Shown here piece after piece: positions 2,483 to 10,667 of a stretch of 10,883 nt of DNA; within the stretch, counting starts at the first letter, position 1, and each line of letters begins with the position of its first letter. The position numbers and the translations under genes were made by a program. A model generated the notes under the pieces. The model made no database searches, was not told the DNA's origin, and was given only the letters and a program-made list of their open reading frames with translations. The DNA lies in the NCBI GenBank assembly GCA_020050375.1, contig JAGVKR010000183.1:1-10883 (forward strand), in the 5' to 3' direction. The DNA comes from Planctomycetales bacterium (GTDB lineage: Bacteria > Planctomycetota > Planctomycetia > Planctomycetales > Planctomycetaceae).

Positions 2483-2797
2483 TCGATTCGTTGTCAAGCA
2501 GGCTCGGCGTCGCCATTCACGCTTTCGCTTGAAGGCGCCGATGGGGATTTCCGGCGCGCCGACGTTCGCCTCGTAACTACCATTTTGTCGGTGGTTTACG
2601 TCTCAAGCCCCTCATTTGACGGCGTTCGCGGGTCGCGCTATGCGAAACCTCGATTCGCGCCCGTCCCATCGCTGGCAATGGGTTTGGCCCTCAGCTACAC
2701 TCAGGCCGTACTAGGAACTGAAGTGTCCCGGAATGAGTTCGAAGTGCGATCATCCGCCGTCGGATGGCCGCACGAAGCGAAGAAGGAGCCTTGCGTC
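2483..2797. other. Gene-free stretch before the hpf-ptsN-HPr-ptsI cluster
   Basis: This stretch of about 315 bases probably holds the end of the lipoprotein transcript and the promoter of the PTS cluster. It contains one modest hairpin, GCGCCG (2535-2540) with CGGCGC (2552-2557) around an 11-base loop, without a T-run. The frame of hpf stays open back to 2585, but the residues it would add are unlike any HPF N-terminus, so I treat it as non-coding. I see no convincing sigma-70 promoter. A sequence resembling a sigma-54 site at 2673-2688 lacks the required GC at -12. Confidence 0.5.
2784..2788 (+). promoter_or_regulatory. Ribosome binding site that fixes the hpf start
   Basis: AGGAG (within GAAGGAG, 2782-2788) lies nine bases before the GTG at 2798. 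It supports a GTG start there over the upstream TTG at 2585. Confidence 0.8.
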
Positions 2798-3127
2798 GTG
2801 CAAGTGGCAATTACCTGCAAGCACGGTCAATTGAACGCCAATCAACAGGAGTACCTCACTCGAAAGTCGGAAAAGCTCCTGACTTATTTCGAACGGGTGA
2901 CCGCGATCCATGTGACGGTTTCGTTCGATAACGGCCGCGTACGGGTGGAAATCCTCGTCGACGCCGAGCACAAGCACAATTTTGTGGCCAACGACCAGGG
3001 TGACGACGTCGTGCCGACGTTCGACTTGGTGCTGCACAAGATGGAACACCAGATCAAGAAATACAAAGAGAAAATCCAGGATCACCGCCGGGACCTGCCT
3101 CTCAATGAGTTAGGCCCGGTTGAGTGA
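2798..3127 (+). CDS. hpf: Ribosome hibernation promoting factor, short form
   Basis: From the GTG at 2798 the product is 109 residues and matches short HPF/YfiA (RaiA) proteins. These bind the 30S decoding region and help inactivate or dimerise ribosomes in stationary phase or starvation. The typical opening is visible ([20 protein letters not shown]), then the [12 protein letters not shown] helix, and strands [20 protein letters not shown]. The second helix is [20 protein letters not shown] (75-94), ending in DHRRD. There is no long C-terminal dimerisation domain, so it is the short type, about 14 residues longer than the E. coli protein. A strong Shine-Dalgarno decides the start. It is 22 bases ahead of ptsN on the same strand. 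In many proteobacteria hpf also neighbours ptsN, downstream of rpoN, so the linkage is meaningful. The stop is TGA. Confidence 0.93.
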
Positions 3128-3149
3128 GTCGAAAGCGAGGAATGATTTT

Positions 3150-3623
3150 ATGAAGTTGTCGGACTTCGTCGTCAAAGAGGCGATTCTGACGGATTTGAAG
3201 GTTGCCACGAAAGAAACTGCCATACGCGCGATGGTGGAGAGTCTGGGGGCAAAGGGCAGCATCAAGGCCGGTGAACAAGAAAGCATCATCGCCGCAATCC
3301 TCAAGCGAGAAGAACTCGGCTCGACCGGGATCGGCAAAGGGGTTGCGGTTCCACACACGAAACATCCGTCGGTCGATCGACTGGTCGCGACGATCGCCCT
3401 CTCGAAGGACGGCGTCGAATTCTCCAGCCTCGACGGTGAGGATGTGCATATTCTGTTTCTTCTGGTCTCCCCTCCCGATCGTCCGGGAGACCACCTGCGG
3501 GCCCTCGAAAACATCTCCCGCCACCTCCGAAACGACAACTTTTGTAATTTCCTGAAGCAGGCCCCTTCGGCTGACGCCGTGATCGAACTCCTGGAGGAAG
3601 CAGACAGCAATCAGCTCGGCTAA
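3150..3623 (+). CDS. ptsN: PTS EIIA-Ntr-type regulatory phosphocarrier
   Basis: This 157-residue protein starts at the ATG preceded by GAGGA (3137-3141) at a spacing of eight. An earlier in-frame start at 3120 overlaps hpf and adds residues not typical of the family. The family opening [18 protein letters not shown] is present. The active-site region reads [19 protein letters not shown], with His69 as the phosphorylated residue, and the second conserved histidine lies in [13 protein letters not shown] (His115). This is the fructose/mannitol-type EIIA fold. With no EIIB or EIIC fused or nearby, it is best read as the regulatory EIIA-Ntr. That protein receives phosphate from an HPr/NPr and modulates targets such as K+ transport and stress signalling in proteobacteria; targets here are unknown. 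It sits in a same-strand cluster with hpf, HPr and Enzyme I. Confidence 0.93.
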
Positions 3624-3656
3624 TCCCCATCAGCAAACTTCCCGTGCCTGATTGAC

Positions 3657-3677
3657 GGGGGGGGGGCGGCGGCGGCG
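3657..3677 (+). repeat. G10 homopolymer followed by CGG repeats
   Basis: Ten consecutive G bases (3657-3666) run directly into short CGG repeats (to 3677), in the 126-base gap between ptsN and the HPr gene. It follows the ptsN stop, and an in-frame TGA at 3684 separates it from HPr. A length change would therefore alter the transcript but neither protein. Confidence 0.8.
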
Positions 3678-3749
3678 CACGATTGATCCGGCGTCTGTCT
3701 TCGGCCCGGCTGGATGGGAAAACCGCTTACGACGAAGCGCGCCGTCTCT

Positions 3750-4040
3750 ATGAATTCGATCCCCACCTGCACGCGCAACGTCGTCGTCGGCCTGGAAAGC
3801 GGCCTGCACCTCACCCCCTCGTCGCAGATCGTCCAATTGGCGCAGAAGTTCAGCTCTGAGTTCCTGATCCGCAAGGGCGACAAGGTAGCGGATGGGAAGA
3901 GCATGCTCGATCTGATGCAGTTGGCGGCCGAGCATGGCGAGACGCTGCAGCTCGAAGCCCGCGGTGACGACGCCGACCAGGTCATTGCGGCTATTTTGTC
4001 GCTCTTCGAGCGGAATTTTAACCTGGATCAGCCGGGCTGA
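3750..4040 (+). CDS. ptsH: HPr-like phosphocarrier (NPr-like) with altered active site
   Basis: From the ATG at 3750 the product is 96 residues; an alternative ATG at 3714 would add 12. Neither has a clear Shine-Dalgarno. The HPr core is plain: [20 protein letters not shown], then a helix [27 protein letters not shown] and the C-terminal helix [18 protein letters not shown]. His20 corresponds to the phosphorylated His15, and Ser51 lies 31 residues later, exactly the His15-Ser46 distance of Bacillus HPr. The usual GLHARP is GLHLTP, so the active-site Arg17 equivalent is Thr22. That residue normally stabilises the phospho-histidine, so transfer kinetics may differ. It lies between ptsN and ptsI, with its TGA stop 25 bases before the Enzyme I start, and probably passes phosphate from Enzyme I to EIIA-Ntr. 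Confidence 0.88.
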
Positions 4041-4065
4041 CCGGCGGTTCATGGTTCAGGAAACC

Positions 4066-5811
4066 ATGGAACTCAATCGCGGAATCGCTGTTGCACCCGG
4101 AGTTGCTATTGGCTCGGCCCTCGTTCTGGGGTCCGAGGATTTCCGCATTCCGCAGCGGTTCGTGCGCATTGACGCGGTCGATTCCGAAATCGCCCGCTTT
4201 CGCGCGGCGCTCACGGCCGCAGTCGCCGAGATCACCGGCCACGAAGCGCTCGCTTCATCGCGGCTCGGGCAACAGTATGGAGCGATCTTTGCCGCCCATA
4301 AGCAGTTGGCGCAAGACCCCAAGTTGCTCAAGGAAATTGAAGACCTGATCCGGCAGAAGTGCCACTCTCCCGAATTTGCATCGAGCCGCGTGCTGCGGCA
4401 GTACGCCCGCACTCTGCAGAATCTCGGGGATCGATATTTCGCCGAACGGGCCACCGACCTGTTCGACCTCGAGAAGCGGATTCTCCGGCACCTGCTGGGG
4501 GAGCGTCGCGAAGAGCTGATGCAACTGACCGCCCCGGTGGTCGTCCTGGCGCATAACCTGACCCCCAGCGAAACCGCCAATCTCGACACGAAATACGTGC
4601 TGGGGTTTGCCACCGAAGTCGGCGGCAAGAGCAGCCATACGGCGATTCTCGCAGGGGCACTCGAATTGCCGGCCGTTGTGGGGGTCGGTTCGTTTCTATC
4701 CGAGGTCTCCGGTGGCGAGACGATCATCATCGACGGCAATCAGGGACTGGTGATCATCGGGCCCGACGAAGAAACCCTCAATCGCTATCACGCCGAAGAA
4801 GTGAAGATGAAATCGGCCGCCGTCCATTTGCGGTCGTTGGGGCCGCTGGAGTCTGTGACGCGCGACGGAGTGCCGATTCACCTCTACGGAAACATCGAAT
4901 TTCCGAATGAAGTCGAGCATTGCACACAACGGGGAGCGGCGGGAATCGGCCTTTACCGGACGGAGTTTCTGTATCTCGAAAGCGACCAGGAGCCGACCGA
5001 AGAGGTGCAATACGCAGCCTACTGCGAGGTCGTCCGTGCCTTTGCCGGCAAGCCGGTGGTCATCCGCACACTCGACCTCGGGGCCGAAAAATTTCCCCAG
5101 TCGATGCAGGAAGTGATCGAAGCCACTCCCAATCCGACGCTGGGCCTGCGAAGCCTGCGGCTGACGCTGCAAAACCTCCCCTTGTTCAAGACGCAGTTGC
5201 GGGCCATTCTCCGCTCCGCCGTCCTGGGGGATGTGCGAGTCATGTTTCCCTTGGTTTCGACGCTTTTGGAGCTGCGGCAGGCCAAAATGATTCTGGCCGA
5301 CGTCATCGACGACCTGGAGGAACAGGGGGCGACATTCAACGGCAAAGTGCAGGTCGGAATGATGGTCGAAGTCCCCTCCGCCGCCCTGATGGCCGACGAG
5401 TTCGCGCGGGAAGTCGACTTTTTCTCCATTGGAACTAACGACCTGATTCAGTATACATTAGCAGTCGATCGAGCGAATCCGGCGGTCGCCAACCTGTACA
5501 GTTCCGCCGATCCTTCGATCTTCCGCATGATTCGTATGGTATTGAGTGCGGCCGAAAAGCACGAAGTCGCGGTTTCGGTCTGCGGCCAGATGAGTTCCGA
5601 TCCGATCTACACCCCGCTGCTGGTGGGGATGGGTCTCCGGGAACTGAGCGTCACTCCGCAGGCCATCCCCGAAGTCAAGCAGGTCGTCCGCAGTCTGACT
5701 GTGCCGCAGGCCCAGGAAATCGCCGAGCACGCCCAGACGCTGGAAGTTGCACGCGACGTGGAAAACTATCTCCGGGGAGAGCTCAAAAAGCTCTGTCCGG
5801 ATTTGGTCTAA
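4066..5811 (+). CDS. ptsI: PTS Enzyme I (PEP:protein phosphotransferase)
   Basis: This 581-residue protein moves phosphate from phosphoenolpyruvate to HPr in the cytoplasm. The start at 4066 is chosen because AGGA lies four bases upstream and the product begins [16 protein letters not shown], as Enzyme I does; an ATG at 4051 is also possible. The N-terminal swivel domain carries [20 protein letters not shown] with the phosphorylated His191. The PEP-binding barrel shows [15 protein letters not shown] (292-306), [14 protein letters not shown] (331-344) and [11 protein letters not shown] (356-366). It continues with [17 protein letters not shown] (430-446), [19 protein letters not shown] (451-469) and [10 protein letters not shown] with catalytic Cys506. 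There is no N-terminal GAF domain as in PtsP, so it is the classical Enzyme I type. CGQMSS differs from the common CGELAG. It is the last gene of the cluster and a strong hairpin follows its TAA stop. Confidence 0.96.
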
Positions 5812-6483: not shown

Positions 6484-7755
6484 ATGAAGAAAGAAATGCT
6501 GGTGAATGCCCTCCAGCCCGAAGAAAGCCGGATCGCAATTGTCGAAAACGGCGTGCTGGAAGAGCTCTACATCGAACGTAACAGTCTCGAAAACTTCACG
6601 GGGAACATCTACAAAGGCCGAATCGTCAACATCGAGCCGAGCATTCAGGCGGCCTTTGTCGATTTCGGCGTCGGACGCAACGGGTTCTTGCACGTCAGCG
6701 ACGTCGAATACCAGTACTACAAGCACCTCCAAAGCCCGGGAGACCGCGGCGGTCCATCGTCGGACGACGATGACGACGAAGACGACGACCCCCGTCCCGC
6801 CCCGCGCGGCGGCCAGAAACGCTTCAACGAGCGCAGCGTTCGCAATAAGCCTCCCATCCAGGAGATCTTCAAGCGCGGCAGCGAGGTGCTCGTTCAGGTC
6901 ATCAAGGAAGGGATCGGCACCAAAGGCCCGACTCTCTCGACCTACATCAGCATTCCCGGGCGCTACCTCGTCCTGATGCCCGGCCTGCAGCGGGTCGGCG
7001 TCAGTCGCAAGATCGTCGACGAGCAGACCCGCCGGCAGCTCCGCACGGCCCTCGAAGCCCTGAAACCACCCCCGGGCCTGGGCTTCATCATCCGCACAGC
7101 GGGAATCGAGCGCTCGCAGCAGGACCTGCAGCGCGACCTGCACTATCTGCTCCGCCTGTGGAACGTCATCGTCCGCCGCATCAAGAAGACCCGCGCGCCG
7201 GTCGACATCTACCAGGAAAGCGACATGGTGATCCGCACCATTCGCGACATCTACAACGCCGAGATCGATACGATCTGGATCGACGAGCAGCAGGCCTACG
7301 AGCGGGCCAGCGAATTTCTGAAGGTCGTGCTCCCGCGTCACGCCAATCGTGTGAAGCTTTACGACGGCAAGGAGCCGCTGTTTCACAAGTACAATATCGA
7401 GCAGGAGATCACCCGCATTCAGCAGCGGCACGTGCCGCTGCCCGGCGGGGGATCGCTCGTCATCGACCAGACCGAGGCCCTCGTGGCGATCGACGTCAAC
7501 AGCGGCAACTTTCGAGCCGACAACGACGCCGAAGAGACCGCCTACCAGGTCAATCTCAAGGCGGCCGCCGAGATCTGCCGGCAGATTCGGCTCCGCGATC
7601 TGGGCGGAGTGATCGTCAACGACTTCATCGACATGCGCGAAGAGCGCCATCGCCGGGGAGTCGAGCGGGCCTTGCGCGACGCCATCCGCCGCGATCGGGC
7701 TCGCAGCAAGGTCCTGCGAATCAGCCCGTTCGGGCTGATCGAAATGACCCGCTAG
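6484..7755 (+). CDS. rng: Ribonuclease E/G, catalytic part, ending at in-frame TAG
   Basis: The 423 residues before the stop are the catalytic region of RNase E/G, the endonuclease that cuts single-stranded RNA in mRNA decay and rRNA/tRNA processing. The S1 domain (about 38-155) includes NIYKGRIVNIEPSIQAAFVD and FLHVSDVE, and is split by an acidic insert (DDDDDEDDD, about 94-102). The 5'-sensor motif is FIIRTAGIERS (Arg204, Thr205). The DNase I-like catalytic site has VAIDVNSGNF (Asp337) and GVIVNDFIDM (Asp380). Translation then meets TAG after ISPFGLIEMTR, where homologues read MTRQR. The zinc-link and small domain, needed for tetramer assembly in E. coli RNase E, follow intact in the same frame to 8109. 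The full product would be about 541 residues with one residue at the TAG. The start has a good Shine-Dalgarno. This could be a nonsense mutation, recoding, or a base-call error. Confidence 0.9.
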   Translation: MKKEMLVNALQPEESRIAIVENGVLEELYIERNSLENFTGNIYKGRIVNIEPSIQAAFVDFGVGRNGFLHVSDVEYQYYKHLQSPGDRGGPSSDDDDDEDDDPRPAPRGGQKRFNERSVRNKPPIQEIFKRGSEVLVQVIKEGIGTKGPTLSTYISIPGRYLVLMPGLQRVGVSRKIVDEQTRRQLRTALEALKPPPGLGFIIRTAGIERSQQDLQRDLHYLLRLWNVIVRRIKKTRAPVDIYQESDMVIRTIRDIYNAEIDTIWIDEQQAYERASEFLKVVLPRHANRVKLYDGKEPLFHKYNIEQEITRIQQRHVPLPGGGSLVIDQTEALVAIDVNSGNFRADNDAEETAYQVNLKAAAEICRQIRLRDLGGVIVNDFIDMREERHRRGVERALRDAIRRDRARSKVLRISPFGLIEMTR

Positions 7756-8109
7756 CGGATCCGGCCTTCGCTCCGCCGCAGCGTTTACGAAGATTGCCCC
7801 TGCTGCCGCGGAACGGGGCTCGTCAAAACCGCCGAAAGCGTCGCGATCGAAGTCGTCCGGTTGTTGCTCAATTCGATCCACCGCGAGAATGTCTCGCGAA
7901 TTACGGTTGAAGTCCACGATCGGGTGGCGACGTACCTGAACAACCGTAAACGTCGTGACCTGATCCATTTCGAGGAAGACAACAACGTCAGCATTCATAT
8001 CAGCTCGCGGGCCGACGTCAGCCCCGAGCACCTTATGATTCGCTGCTTCGACGGGACCGGGACAGAGCTCAAGTTTCTGACCTCGGAACCCTCGAAATCG
8101 GGGCGTTGA
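7756..8109 (+). pseudogene. C-terminal part of RNase E/G, in frame after TAG
   Basis: Immediately after the TAG at 7753-7755 the same frame reads RIRPSLRRSVYEDCPCCRGT, the conserved RNase E/G continuation. It contains the CPxC zinc-link (here CPCC) and then GTGLVKTAESVAIEVVRLLL. The small domain continues to a TGA at 8107-8109, 117 codons in all and without another stop. Nothing like a start with a Shine-Dalgarno is found before the zinc-link; the first ATG (7861) lies beyond it, so separate translation as a second subunit is unlikely. The absence of further damage argues that the stop is recent, suppressed or an artefact. Marked as a pseudogene fragment only because standard decoding would not translate it. 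Confidence 0.75.
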
Positions 8110-8249: not shown

Positions 8250-8579
8250 ATCTTCGCCATTTTCGAAGACGGTAGTCACCAGTACCGCGTGCAGCCCGGA
8301 GACAAGCTCAAGGTCGATTTCCGCGATGCGGCGAAGGCCGGCGACGCGCTGAATTTCGACCGCGTGCTGGCAGCCGGCTCCGACACCACCGGCCAGATCG
8401 GCCGCCCGCTGATCGCGGGCGCCTCGATCACTGCCGAGGTCATCGAGACCGCCTACGACCGCAAACTGGAAGTCGGCAAGTTCCGCCGCCGCAAAGGTTA
8501 CATCCGCCACAACGGCCACACGCAGAAGTACACGGCGGTCAAGATCACGGCGATCAACGTGCCCGGCCTGGCGGACTGA
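8250..8579 (+). CDS. rplU: Large-subunit ribosomal protein bL21, apparent ATC start
   Basis: bL21 binds 23S rRNA in the large ribosomal subunit. Read from the ATC at 8250 the product is 109 residues, near the usual 103. The opening IFAIFEDGSHQYRVQPGDKL matches the family start MYAIFxDGxxQYRV with Ile codon for Met. The rest is typical: ALNFDRVLAAG, IGRPLIAGASITAEVI, VGKFRRRKGYIRHNGHTQKY and AVKITAI near the end. The only standard start in frame is a GTG at 8289, which would remove the conserved first beta-strand and has no good Shine-Dalgarno; an automatic annotation might use it, giving 96 residues. RNase E/G upstream of rplU is a known gene order in several bacterial groups. The usual next gene rpmA (bL27) is absent. 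The function is certain; the true start is not. Confidence 0.9.
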   Translation: MFAIFEDGSHQYRVQPGDKLKVDFRDAAKAGDALNFDRVLAAGSDTTGQIGRPLIAGASITAEVIETAYDRKLEVGKFRRRKGYIRHNGHTQKYTAVKITAINVPGLAD

Positions 8580-8760: not shown

Positions 8761-9669
8761 ATGCCCTCACACGCCGAACTGCTGACCGAGCTGCGCTGGA
8801 AGAAGTTTCCGGTGCTCAACGACGGGTTCGTGTGCCTGGTCGACTGCATGGGAGACGACGCTGCCGTCGTGCAGGCGGCCCGCGTCAGCTACGGTGAAGG
8901 AACCAAGCGCGTCTCCGACGACCGGACGCTGATTCGCTACCTGCTGCGGCATCGGCACACGACTCCCTTCGAGATGGTCGAGATCAAGTTTCTCGTCCGC
9001 GTCCCGATGGATTGCTGGCGGCAATGGATCCGCCACCGGACCGCCTCGGTGAACGAGTACAGCACGCGCTACTCGGTCGCCATCGACTCGATGCAGGCCA
9101 CTCCCGCCGACGATTGGCGAACGCAGGCTGAACAAAACCGCCAAGGCAGCGGCGCCCCGCTCGCGGCCGAGCTGGGCCAGTCCCTCACCGACGACGAGCA
9201 TCACTTCCAGGTGATGGCCCGGCAGATTTATCAGAAGCGTCTGGAGGCCGGCGTCGCCCGCGAGCAGGCTCGCAAAGATCTTCCCCTCTCGACGTACACC
9301 GAAGCTTATTGGAAGATCGACCTGCACAACCTGCTGCACTTTCTCGCCCTGCGGATGGACACGCACGCCCAGCAGGAAATCCGCGACTACGCCACGGCGA
9401 TCGGCGAGAACATCGTCCAGCCCCTCTTCCCCATCGTGTGGGAGGCGTTCCGAGATTATCGCCTGGCCGGATTGAACCTCTCGGGCCTCGAAGTCGGCGT
9501 GCTGCAGCGCCTGGCCGCGCGCCCGCGCGCCATCGATCGAAACACCTGGACCGAAGAAGACTTCGCCGCCGCGCAGGATGAATCGTGGCGCGGCCTCGCC
9601 CGATCGCGCGAGCGCGACGAATGTCGCGCGAAGCTCGAAAAGCTGGGGTTGCTTGAATCGCGGCTGTGA
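8761..9669 (+). CDS. thyX: Flavin-dependent thymidylate synthase ThyX
   Basis: ThyX makes dTMP from dUMP using FAD, NADPH and methylene-tetrahydrofolate, and is unrelated to ThyA. The signature RHRx7S is present as RHRTASVNEYS (Arg91-Ser101), followed by TRYS. Other conserved parts are RVSYGEGTK (41-49), RHTTPFEMVEIKF (65-77), AREQARKDLPLSTYTEAYWK (166-185) and FLALRMDTHAQQEIRDYA (194-211). The protein has 302 residues, longer than the roughly 220 of Thermotoga ThyX, through an insert around 110-150 and a C-terminal tail of about 70 residues. The ATG at 8761 is chosen; a GTG at 8752 would add three residues. No Shine-Dalgarno is evident because the upstream region is repeat DNA, so translation may be weak or leaderless. 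It stands alone, convergent with the creatininase-family gene. Confidence 0.95.
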   Translation: MPSHAELLTELRWKKFPVLNDGFVCLVDCMGDDAAVVQAARVSYGEGTKRVSDDRTLIRYLLRHRHTTPFEMVEIKFLVRVPMDCWRQWIRHRTASVNEYSTRYSVAIDSMQATPADDWRTQAEQNRQGSGAPLAAELGQSLTDDEHHFQVMARQIYQKRLEAGVAREQARKDLPLSTYTEAYWKIDLHNLLHFLALRMDTHAQQEIRDYATAIGENIVQPLFPIVWEAFRDYRLAGLNLSGLEVGVLQRLAARPRAIDRNTWTEEDFAAAQDESWRGLARSRERDECRAKLEKLGLLESRL

Positions 9670-9674
9670 TGCGG

Positions 9675-9862
9675 AAATGCCGAATGACTAAGGGCAAATG
9701 TCCAATGAAATCCGAATTCTGAAATTCAAATGTCTAAGGAAATTCAAAACTCCAAAGACAACAAGATGTGTCTAACTCCGTTTTGATTTTCAGTTTTTGG
9801 ATTTCCTTCGACATTTGAATTTCGGGCTTCTTTAGACATTGGGTTTTCGACATTCGGCATTT
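9675..9862. repeat. Long imperfect palindromic element after thyX
   Basis: The outer ends AAATGCCGAATG (9675-9686) and CATTCGGCATTT (9851-9862) are perfect inverted copies. Further inside, both arms share GAAATTCAAATGTC followed by AAGGAAAT(T/C)CAAAA, giving imperfect arms of about 75-80 bases. It is much richer in A+T than its surroundings and has no coding capacity. It begins five bases after the thyX stop, between convergent genes, so it may terminate transcription from both sides. It looks like a non-autonomous mobile or REP-type repeat. Confidence 0.7.
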
Positions 9863-9881
9863 TATCCCAGTCCGCGCTTCA

Positions 9882-9897
9882 GGGGGCTGACGCCCCC
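9882..9897. repeat. GC-rich REP-like hairpin
   Basis: GGGGGC (9882-9887) and GCCCCC (9892-9897) form a perfect 6-bp stem with a TGAC loop. It lies 11 bases beyond the stop of the creatininase-family gene, so it could help end that transcript. No T-run follows on the minus strand. Confidence 0.55.
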
Positions 9898-9908
9898 CGC
9901 TCGCCTGG

Positions 9909-10667
9909 TTACCCCTCCCACGACTTGCCGTCCCAGGCTATGACCCGTTCGAGCAGGGTGACAACGTCGGCGGAGAAGACTTTGAAGATCGTCTCTCCTT
10001 TCTCGGCGGTCGCGTGCCGCGGGTCGCCGATGTGGCCGGGAGCGGTGCGGTCTTTGGTGATCCAGGCCCGGTGAGCCGGCTCGAAGGAGTTGCCGAAGGG
10101 GACCTCTTCCACCTTCTTCAGGTCGCCAACGAGATGCGGGGCGATCTTGAGGATCATCGACGTCTCGAACTCGCAGGCGTGCCCCATCTTATCCTGCTTG
10201 ATGCTCGGGTCGACTGTTTTCGGCTGGCCCCCCAGTGTCCAGTACGTCGTCGACAGGAGCAGCAGATCTTTCCGTGTGCGGTGCTTCTGCCGGATTTCGA
10301 ACGTCGCCTGCTGGGCGGGAACGATGTTTCCACCGTGGCCATTGAGCAGGATGATTCGCTGGAAGCCGTGGAAGATCATGTTCTCCATCAGGTCGGCCAG
10401 CAGGTCGAGATAGAGCCGCGGCGAGGCGGAGATTGTCCCCGGGAAATCGATGTGATGATGCGAGTTGCCGATCCAGGTGAGCGGGACGAACAGCACGCGA
10501 TCCTTCATCGTTTCAGAAACGCGCCGCACGACTTCGCCCAGAAGCAAGCTATCGGTGAAGAGGGGCATATGCCGGCCATGCTGCTCGAGCGCGGCGACGG
10601 GAATCACAACCGGCGTGCTCTTGGGCAGCGCCTCGACCTGAGGCCACGTCATTTCGAACAAGTGCAC
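9909..10667 (-). CDS. Creatininase-family amidohydrolase
   Basis: This 252-residue protein belongs to the creatininase family, metal-dependent amidohydrolases that open cyclic or formamide-type amides. The metal-site motifs are visible: PVAALEQHGRHMPLFTDS (Glu28, His30, Asp39), LLNGHGGNIV (His111) and GHACEFETS (Glu166). The conserved WIGNSHHHIDFPGTIS segment is at 65-80. The GTG at 10667 is chosen as start because AGGAG lies eight bases upstream and VHLFEMTWPQV matches the usual beginning; an earlier in-frame GTG at 10757 would add 30 residues without support. Family members act on creatinine, on mycofactocin precursor (MftE) or on a riboflavin-pathway formamide; no neighbour indicates which applies, so the substrate is unknown. 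The stop is TAA. Confidence 0.92.
   Translation of the reverse strand: MHLFEMTWPQVEALPKSTPVVIPVAALEQHGRHMPLFTDSLLLGEVVRRVSETMKDRVLFVPLTWIGNSHHHIDFPGTISASPRLYLDLLADLMENMIFHGFQRIILLNGHGGNIVPAQQATFEIRQKHRTRKDLLLLSTTYWTLGGQPKTVDPSIKQDKMGHACEFETSMILKIAPHLVGDLKKVEEVPFGNSFEPAHRAWITKDRTAPGHIGDPRHATAEKGETIFKVFSADVVTLLERVIAWDGKSWEG

What the first reader, a model, noticed from the sequence alone, without database searches (positions are those of the whole stretch)
7753..7755. In-frame amber codon at a conserved Gln of RNase E/G
The sequence reads GLIEMTR-TAG-RIRPSLRRSVY where RNase E/G proteins read MTRQR or SRQR. CAG to TAG is one base change. The downstream 117 codons, including the CPCC zinc-link, stay in frame and intact to a TGA. 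Eleven other complete reading-frame ends in the window use TGA or TAA and none uses TAG. Options: a recent nonsense mutation leaving a catalytic domain without zinc-link, amber suppression inserting Gln or another residue, or a base-call error. A weak GCGGA/TCCGC hairpin (7755-7759 with 7772-7776) overlaps the stop and could influence readthrough.
Basis: partly seen in the sequence, partly recalled or inferred. Interest (0 to 1): 0.8.

Follow-up and report, generated by a model that had tools for sequence, protein, structure and literature searches.

The report
Stray stop codon in RNase E/G
The RNase E/G gene of an uncultured planctomycete is cut by a premature stop codon, but other genes in the same rough draft genome are cut in the same way, so this looks like an assembly error or a recent random mutation and not a new way of reading the genetic code.

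Summary
RNase E/G (6484-8109) has one internal stop, TAG 7753-7755, where 29 of 29 relative loci read and 119 of 119 homologues have Gln. The genome is a fragmented draft (845 contigs, 66.6% complete).

TAG is an ordinary stop here: it ends 9 of 36 homology-checked frames. An uninterrupted RF1 gene is present. None of 28 tRNAs has anticodon CUA, though tRNA-Gln is missing too. The hairpin is no better than shuffles.

Rne is not special. In the sampled 14% of the genome three more genes are cut by one stop: a PQQ propeller (TAG), a ScaI-type restriction enzyme (TAA) and a TolC-like protein (TAA). Two relatives' drafts also have a single-stop PQQ gene. The part of rne downstream of the stop shows no clear relaxation.

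Best reading: a scattered single-base substitution, as a consensus error in a rough assembly (0.50) or a real recent nonsense allele (0.38). Read-through is unlikely (0.06) but not excluded: all four stops are TAR, and two or three sit at Gln positions.

The parts
6484..8109 (+). RNase E/G gene (rne/rng), interrupted by one internal stop
7753..7755 (+). in-frame TAG where relatives have Gln; equivalent to position 390 by the chain numbering of E. coli RNase E 2vrt_A (window residue 423 aligns to 389)
6484..7752 (+). upstream part, 423 codons: S1 and the RNase_E_G catalytic domain, including AIDVNS (7486-7503) and NDFIDM (7618-7635), which align with the regions recalled to hold the two catalytic Asp of E. 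coli RNase E
   Evidence: catalytic roles recalled
7756..8106 (+). downstream part, 117 codons, open: rest of the large domain, zinc-link and small domain (RNase_E_G_Thio)
7795..7818 (+). CPCCRGTG, fits the zinc-link pattern CPxCxGxG
   Evidence: pattern from PMC2631609 (passage)
7755..7776 (+). GCGGA/TCCGC letters proposed as a hairpin; not better than shuffles
8250..8579 (+). ribosomal protein L21 gene downstream; rne-rplU order also in G001 and G009

Best explanation
The TAG is a single-base substitution in one rough metagenome-assembled genome. The gene in living cells most likely reads straight through with Gln, and the assembled contig carries a consensus error or a minority base. It does nothing by itself. 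Shown: the stop, the conserved Gln, the intact downstream frame, ordinary use of TAG as a stop, and at least three other genes with a single premature stop in the sampled 14% of the same assembly. Inferred: that these are errors and not real mutations. No reads or coverage were available.
For: 845 contigs, 66.6% complete. Three further single-stop interruptions in unrelated genes: PQQ propeller, ScaI-type restriction enzyme, TolC-like. All four frames are open on both sides of the stop. No frameshift-like pair among tblastn matches covering 118 kb of this genome; in true pseudogenes I would expect some (recalled, not tested). The part of rne downstream of the stop shows no clear excess of changes in this lineage: 2 residues against 5 in G001 with G009 as outgroup, 3 against 3 with G033. 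With about 3% of coding substitutions giving a stop, four stops imply by hand about 130 substitutions in 0.6 Mb, roughly 2 per 10,000 bases, which is plausible for thin coverage. Rne has an internal stop in no other listed match of 158 family genomes that have the gene (the match list is cut).
Against: No read evidence. The frameshift test covers less sequence than the codon scan, and three of the four stops were found by the codon scan, not by it. Same-genus genome G001 showed a split domain at 0 of 35 comparable sites, but one of its PQQ genes does have an early TAG at a position where the query has Trp, and G021 has a TAA inside its PQQ gene, so such stops are not peculiar to this draft. 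Two or three of the four stops fall at Gln positions: P of 3 or more of 4 is 0.008 to 0.07 depending on the transition weight.
Confidence: 0.5

Rival explanations
1. A real, recent nonsense allele in this strain or population. Translation stops after 423 residues, leaving the catalytic domain without its last stretch, zinc-link and small domain, so a mostly dimeric, weak RNase E/G or none; RNase Y may carry the load.
For: The truncated part keeps the whole RNase_E_G profile (1-267 of 270). PMC2631609 (passages) says that mutation or deletion of the zinc motif prevents tetramers and substantially reduces activity; [quoted passage not shown] RNase E/G seems dispensable in the family: 4 of 130 good genomes lack a match, and RNase Y is found in 5 of 6 genomes over cut-off, with a contig-end fragment in this one. 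Scattered single stops are also seen in relatives. Downstream constraint fits a very young mutation.
Against: RNase E/G is kept in 126 of 130 good family genomes. The stop is seen in one assembly only; no second copy of the gene was found in it.
Confidence: 0.38
2. Stop codon read-through: a suppressor tRNA, perhaps a Gln tRNA reading UAG and UAA, inserts Gln and full-length RNase E/G is made in part.
For: All four premature stops are TAR, none TGA, and two (three with the ScaI-type gene, where 63 of 119 relatives have Gln) lie at Gln positions; downstream parts stay intact. P of 4 of 4 TAR by chance is 0.26 to 0.36.
Against: TAG and TAA close 15 of 36 homology-checked frames; RF1 uninterrupted; none of 28 tRNAs reads UAG, though no tRNA-Gln was found either, so the test is weak; the TolC-like stop is at a position where 24 of 43 relatives have Glu and 2 have Gln; PylS only below cut-off.
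Confidence: 0.06
3. Programmed read-through or regulation by the stop and hairpin, giving two forms of RNase E/G.
For: A stem can be drawn next to the stop.
Against: No excess folding (z -0.19); no relative read has the stop; no Rfam match in the window.
Confidence: 0.02

Closest known systems
RNase E/G of Planctomycetes (e.g. P0001, 92% identical; same-genus G001, 90% over the C-terminal part)
   Same: length, domain order, motifs, neighbourhood with ptsI and rplU
   Different: none of the relatives read has a stop at this Gln
E. coli RNase E catalytic part (PDB 2bx2, 2vrt and others)
   Same: aligns from S1 to the end of the upstream part, E 1.4e-99
   Different: the window's open frame ends at the equivalent of residue 389; zinc-link and small domain lie beyond the stop
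Amber/ochre suppression and stop codon reassignment (recalled)
   Same: stop at a Gln position with intact frame downstream
   Different: TAG and TAA still end genes, RF1 kept, no matching tRNA found
Isolated premature stops in draft metagenome-assembled genomes
   Same: single substitution, otherwise intact gene, several unrelated genes in one draft
   Different: nothing that I could test

Membership tests
RNase E/G family | RNase_E_G catalytic domain | tested here: met
   PF10150, 337 bits, profile 1-267 of 270
RNase E/G family | S1 domain | tested here: met
   PF00575, 26.8 bits, cut-off 22
RNase E/G family | zinc-link and C-terminal small domain in the same open frame | tested here: not met
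   both are encoded, but beyond the in-frame TAG
Stop codon recoding (TAG or TAR as Gln) | the codon no longer ends genes | tested here: not met
   TAG ends 9 and TAA 6 of 36 homology-checked frames; 5 of the 9 TAG ends have another stop in G001; at least one of the 36 is a shadow frame (a TGA one)
Stop codon recoding (TAG or TAR as Gln) | loss or change of RF1 | tested here: not met
   RF1 465 bits, above cut-off, GGQ and uninterrupted
Stop codon recoding (TAG or TAR as Gln) | tRNA reading UAG or UAA | tested here: inconclusive
   none in 28 tRNAs, but no tRNA-Gln either; genome 66.6% complete
Stop codon recoding (TAG or TAR as Gln) | many in-frame stops at one amino acid across conserved genes | tested here: inconclusive
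   four found in about 14% of the genome: Gln, Gln, mostly Gln, mostly Glu
Pyrrolysine system | PylS | tested here: not met
   only 20.7 bits against a cut-off of 178; incomplete genome
Assembly or base-call error | reads disagree with the consensus | not testable with these tools
   no reads or coverage held

The most novel reading that the evidence does not exclude
This lineage carries a suppressor, perhaps an ochre-type Gln tRNA in the missing third of the genome, that partly reads UAG and UAA as Gln, so that scattered TAR codons at Gln sites are tolerated while TAR still ends genes.
Probability: 0.04. Interest if true: 0.85.

Novelty: not a real feature. Interest (0 to 1): 0.15.

Why it matters
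If the stop were truly read as Gln, a free-living planctomycete would have a partly recoded stop, which would be a striking find. As it stands the case mainly shows that a single in-frame stop in a draft metagenome genome should be checked against the rest of the assembly: three more genes interrupted by a lone stop turned up in 14% of the sequence, and two relatives' drafts have the like.

Tried and rejected
Second copy of the gene: none in this genome. Pyrrolysine: no PylS above cut-off. RF1 defect: none seen. Hairpin-driven read-through: not significant. Rfam: no match in the window. First codon scan: nine candidates, none of which was the rne site. L188 and L220 are explained by genes on the other strand or by an ordinary end; L208, L174, L197 and L150 gave no split domain; the two L169 and one L175 candidates were not examined singly. 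Second scan: 19 sites in 457 kb; rne, PQQ and ScaI-type are premature, the other 16 look like gene boundaries (Pfam; L162; L178-2383 and L213 by eye only). Third scan: 17 sites in 622 kb (about 614 kb unique); it added TolC but missed rne itself, so sensitivity is limited. L200-385 (transposase fragment) is unresolved; L159 and L326 were judged by eye. Control G001: 35 sites in 791 kb, none with a single Pfam match across the stop, 3 with no Pfam match at all (at E 1e-4, read with X at the stop; G000 pieces were mostly scanned apart at E 1e-3). G001's sampled contigs are also longer than those of G000, so the control is not matched. By hand, 3 of 19 against 0 of 35 has P about 0.04, which the early TAG in a G001 PQQ gene outside the sample weakens further. 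G004's stop lies before the start and is no interruption. Paper searches: for Planctomycetes with stop codon and readthrough, 4 listings, none read; for errors in metagenome genomes, none found with those four terms together.

Full report
What is there. The window is contig C70 of a draft genome of 4.38 Mb in 845 contigs, 66.6% complete. Its closest named relatives by RNase E/G are planctomycete metagenome genomes. The RNase E/G gene runs from ATG 6484 to TGA 8107-8109 and has one internal stop, TAG 7753-7755. The frame goes on for 117 codons with the zinc-link pattern and the small domain.

Conservation. At this codon 29 of 29 relative loci read have Gln (21 CAG, 8 CAA; 55 relatives matched, 29 were fetched). 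So do 119 of 119 other proteins among the best 120 hits and 75 of 80 loci of genome contigs; 3 more have Lys and 2 show no motif. By alignment to E. coli RNase E the stop is at the equivalent of residue 390. In the family search 158 of 169 genomes have the domain, and every listed match but this one is free of stops; the list is cut.

Selection. Against G001 omega is 0.076 upstream and 0.072 downstream of the stop, but 0.037 in the 125 codons just upstream. Against G009 it is 0.108 and 0.090. Against the more distant G033 and G024 the downstream part is less constrained (0.20 and 0.22, against 0.07 and 0.10 upstream), as may be usual for this domain. The relative-rate count downstream is 2 changes here against 5 in G001 (outgroup G009; 6 ambiguous) and 3 against 3 (outgroup G033; 7 ambiguous). 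So there is no sign of long decay: the stop is young, or not real, or read through.

Is TAG a stop here? Yes. It ends 9 of 36 frames whose ends were checked against G001 frames, and 5 of these 9 have another stop in G001. RF1 is present and uninterrupted. None of 28 tRNAs has CUA, but none is tRNA-Gln either, so the draft lacks tRNAs. PylS is absent above cut-off. The proposed hairpin is not better than shuffles.

Is rne alone? No. A codon-usage scan for stops inside one coding frame gave 19 sites in 457 kb. Three are premature: rne; a PQQ beta-propeller gene (L195 2718, TAG) where 12 of 14 relative loci show Gln and 2 show no motif; and a ScaI-type restriction gene (L149 8907, TAA) where 63 of 119 relatives have Gln, 31 Arg and 25 another residue. 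A second scan over 622 kb added a TolC-like gene (L178 4335, TAA) where 24 of 43 relatives that span the site have Glu and 2 Gln. The PQQ gene, like rne, shows no relaxation downstream (13 changes against 19 in G001).

Control. In G001, 35 sites of the same kind showed no domain across the stop. That contrast must be taken with care: G001's sampled contigs are longer, 3 sites had no Pfam match, and outside the sample a G001 PQQ gene has an early TAG where the query has Trp; G021 has a TAA inside its PQQ gene. Lone premature stops therefore occur in several drafts of this family, at positions of different amino acids.

Pattern of the four stops. All are TAR (P 0.26 to 0.36 by chance) and two or three are at Gln positions (P of 3 or more 0.008 to 0.07, by transition weight). 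This is the one hint for suppression. The Glu site, and the Trp site in G001, speak against a Gln-only rule, and TAR still ends genes.

How it most likely works. It does not work as anything: a one-base substitution in a rough consensus (0.50), or a real young nonsense allele (0.38). In the second case the product would end before the zinc-link. PMC2631609 (passages) states that mutating or deleting this motif prevents tetramers and substantially reduces activity, so the enzyme would be weak. Loss is tolerated now and then in the family: 4 of 130 good genomes lack the domain, and RNase Y is present in 5 of 6 genomes looked at over cut-off, with a contig-end fragment here.

Limits. No reads, one third of the genome missing, 14% sampled, scans of limited sensitivity (the third scan missed rne itself), and no second genome of the species. 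The nearest protein in the database is 92% identical.

Noticed in passing
L195 (G000:C53) 2718-2720, - strand: PQQ beta-propeller gene cut by a single TAG where relatives have Gln; downstream part intact.
   Followed up: yes
L149 (G000:C7) 8907-8909, + strand: ScaI-type restriction endonuclease gene cut by a single TAA where about half of the relatives have Gln.
   Followed up: yes
L178 (G000:C36) 4335-4337, - strand: TolC-like gene at a contig end cut by a single TAA where most relatives that span it have Glu.
   Followed up: yes
L329 (G001:C91) and L306 (G021:C528): PQQ genes of two relatives also carry one early or internal stop (TAG, TAA).
   Followed up: partly
G010, G028, G102, G190: Four family genomes of good quality show no RNase E/G match; G010 and G028 do have RNase Y.
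   Followed up: partly
window 9675-9862 and 9874-9911: Imperfect inverted repeat (67-nt arms, 72% complementary) after thyX, and next to it a stretch of about 30 bases with many near-identical copies in G001, perhaps a dispersed palindromic repeat.
   Followed up: partly
window 2585-5811: Run of ribosome hibernation factor, PTS EIIA, HPr and PTS enzyme I genes before rne; 2778-5811 is collinear with rne in G001 and G009.
   Followed up: partly
L200 (G000:C58) 385: Possible further in-frame TAG in a transposase fragment.
   Followed up: partly
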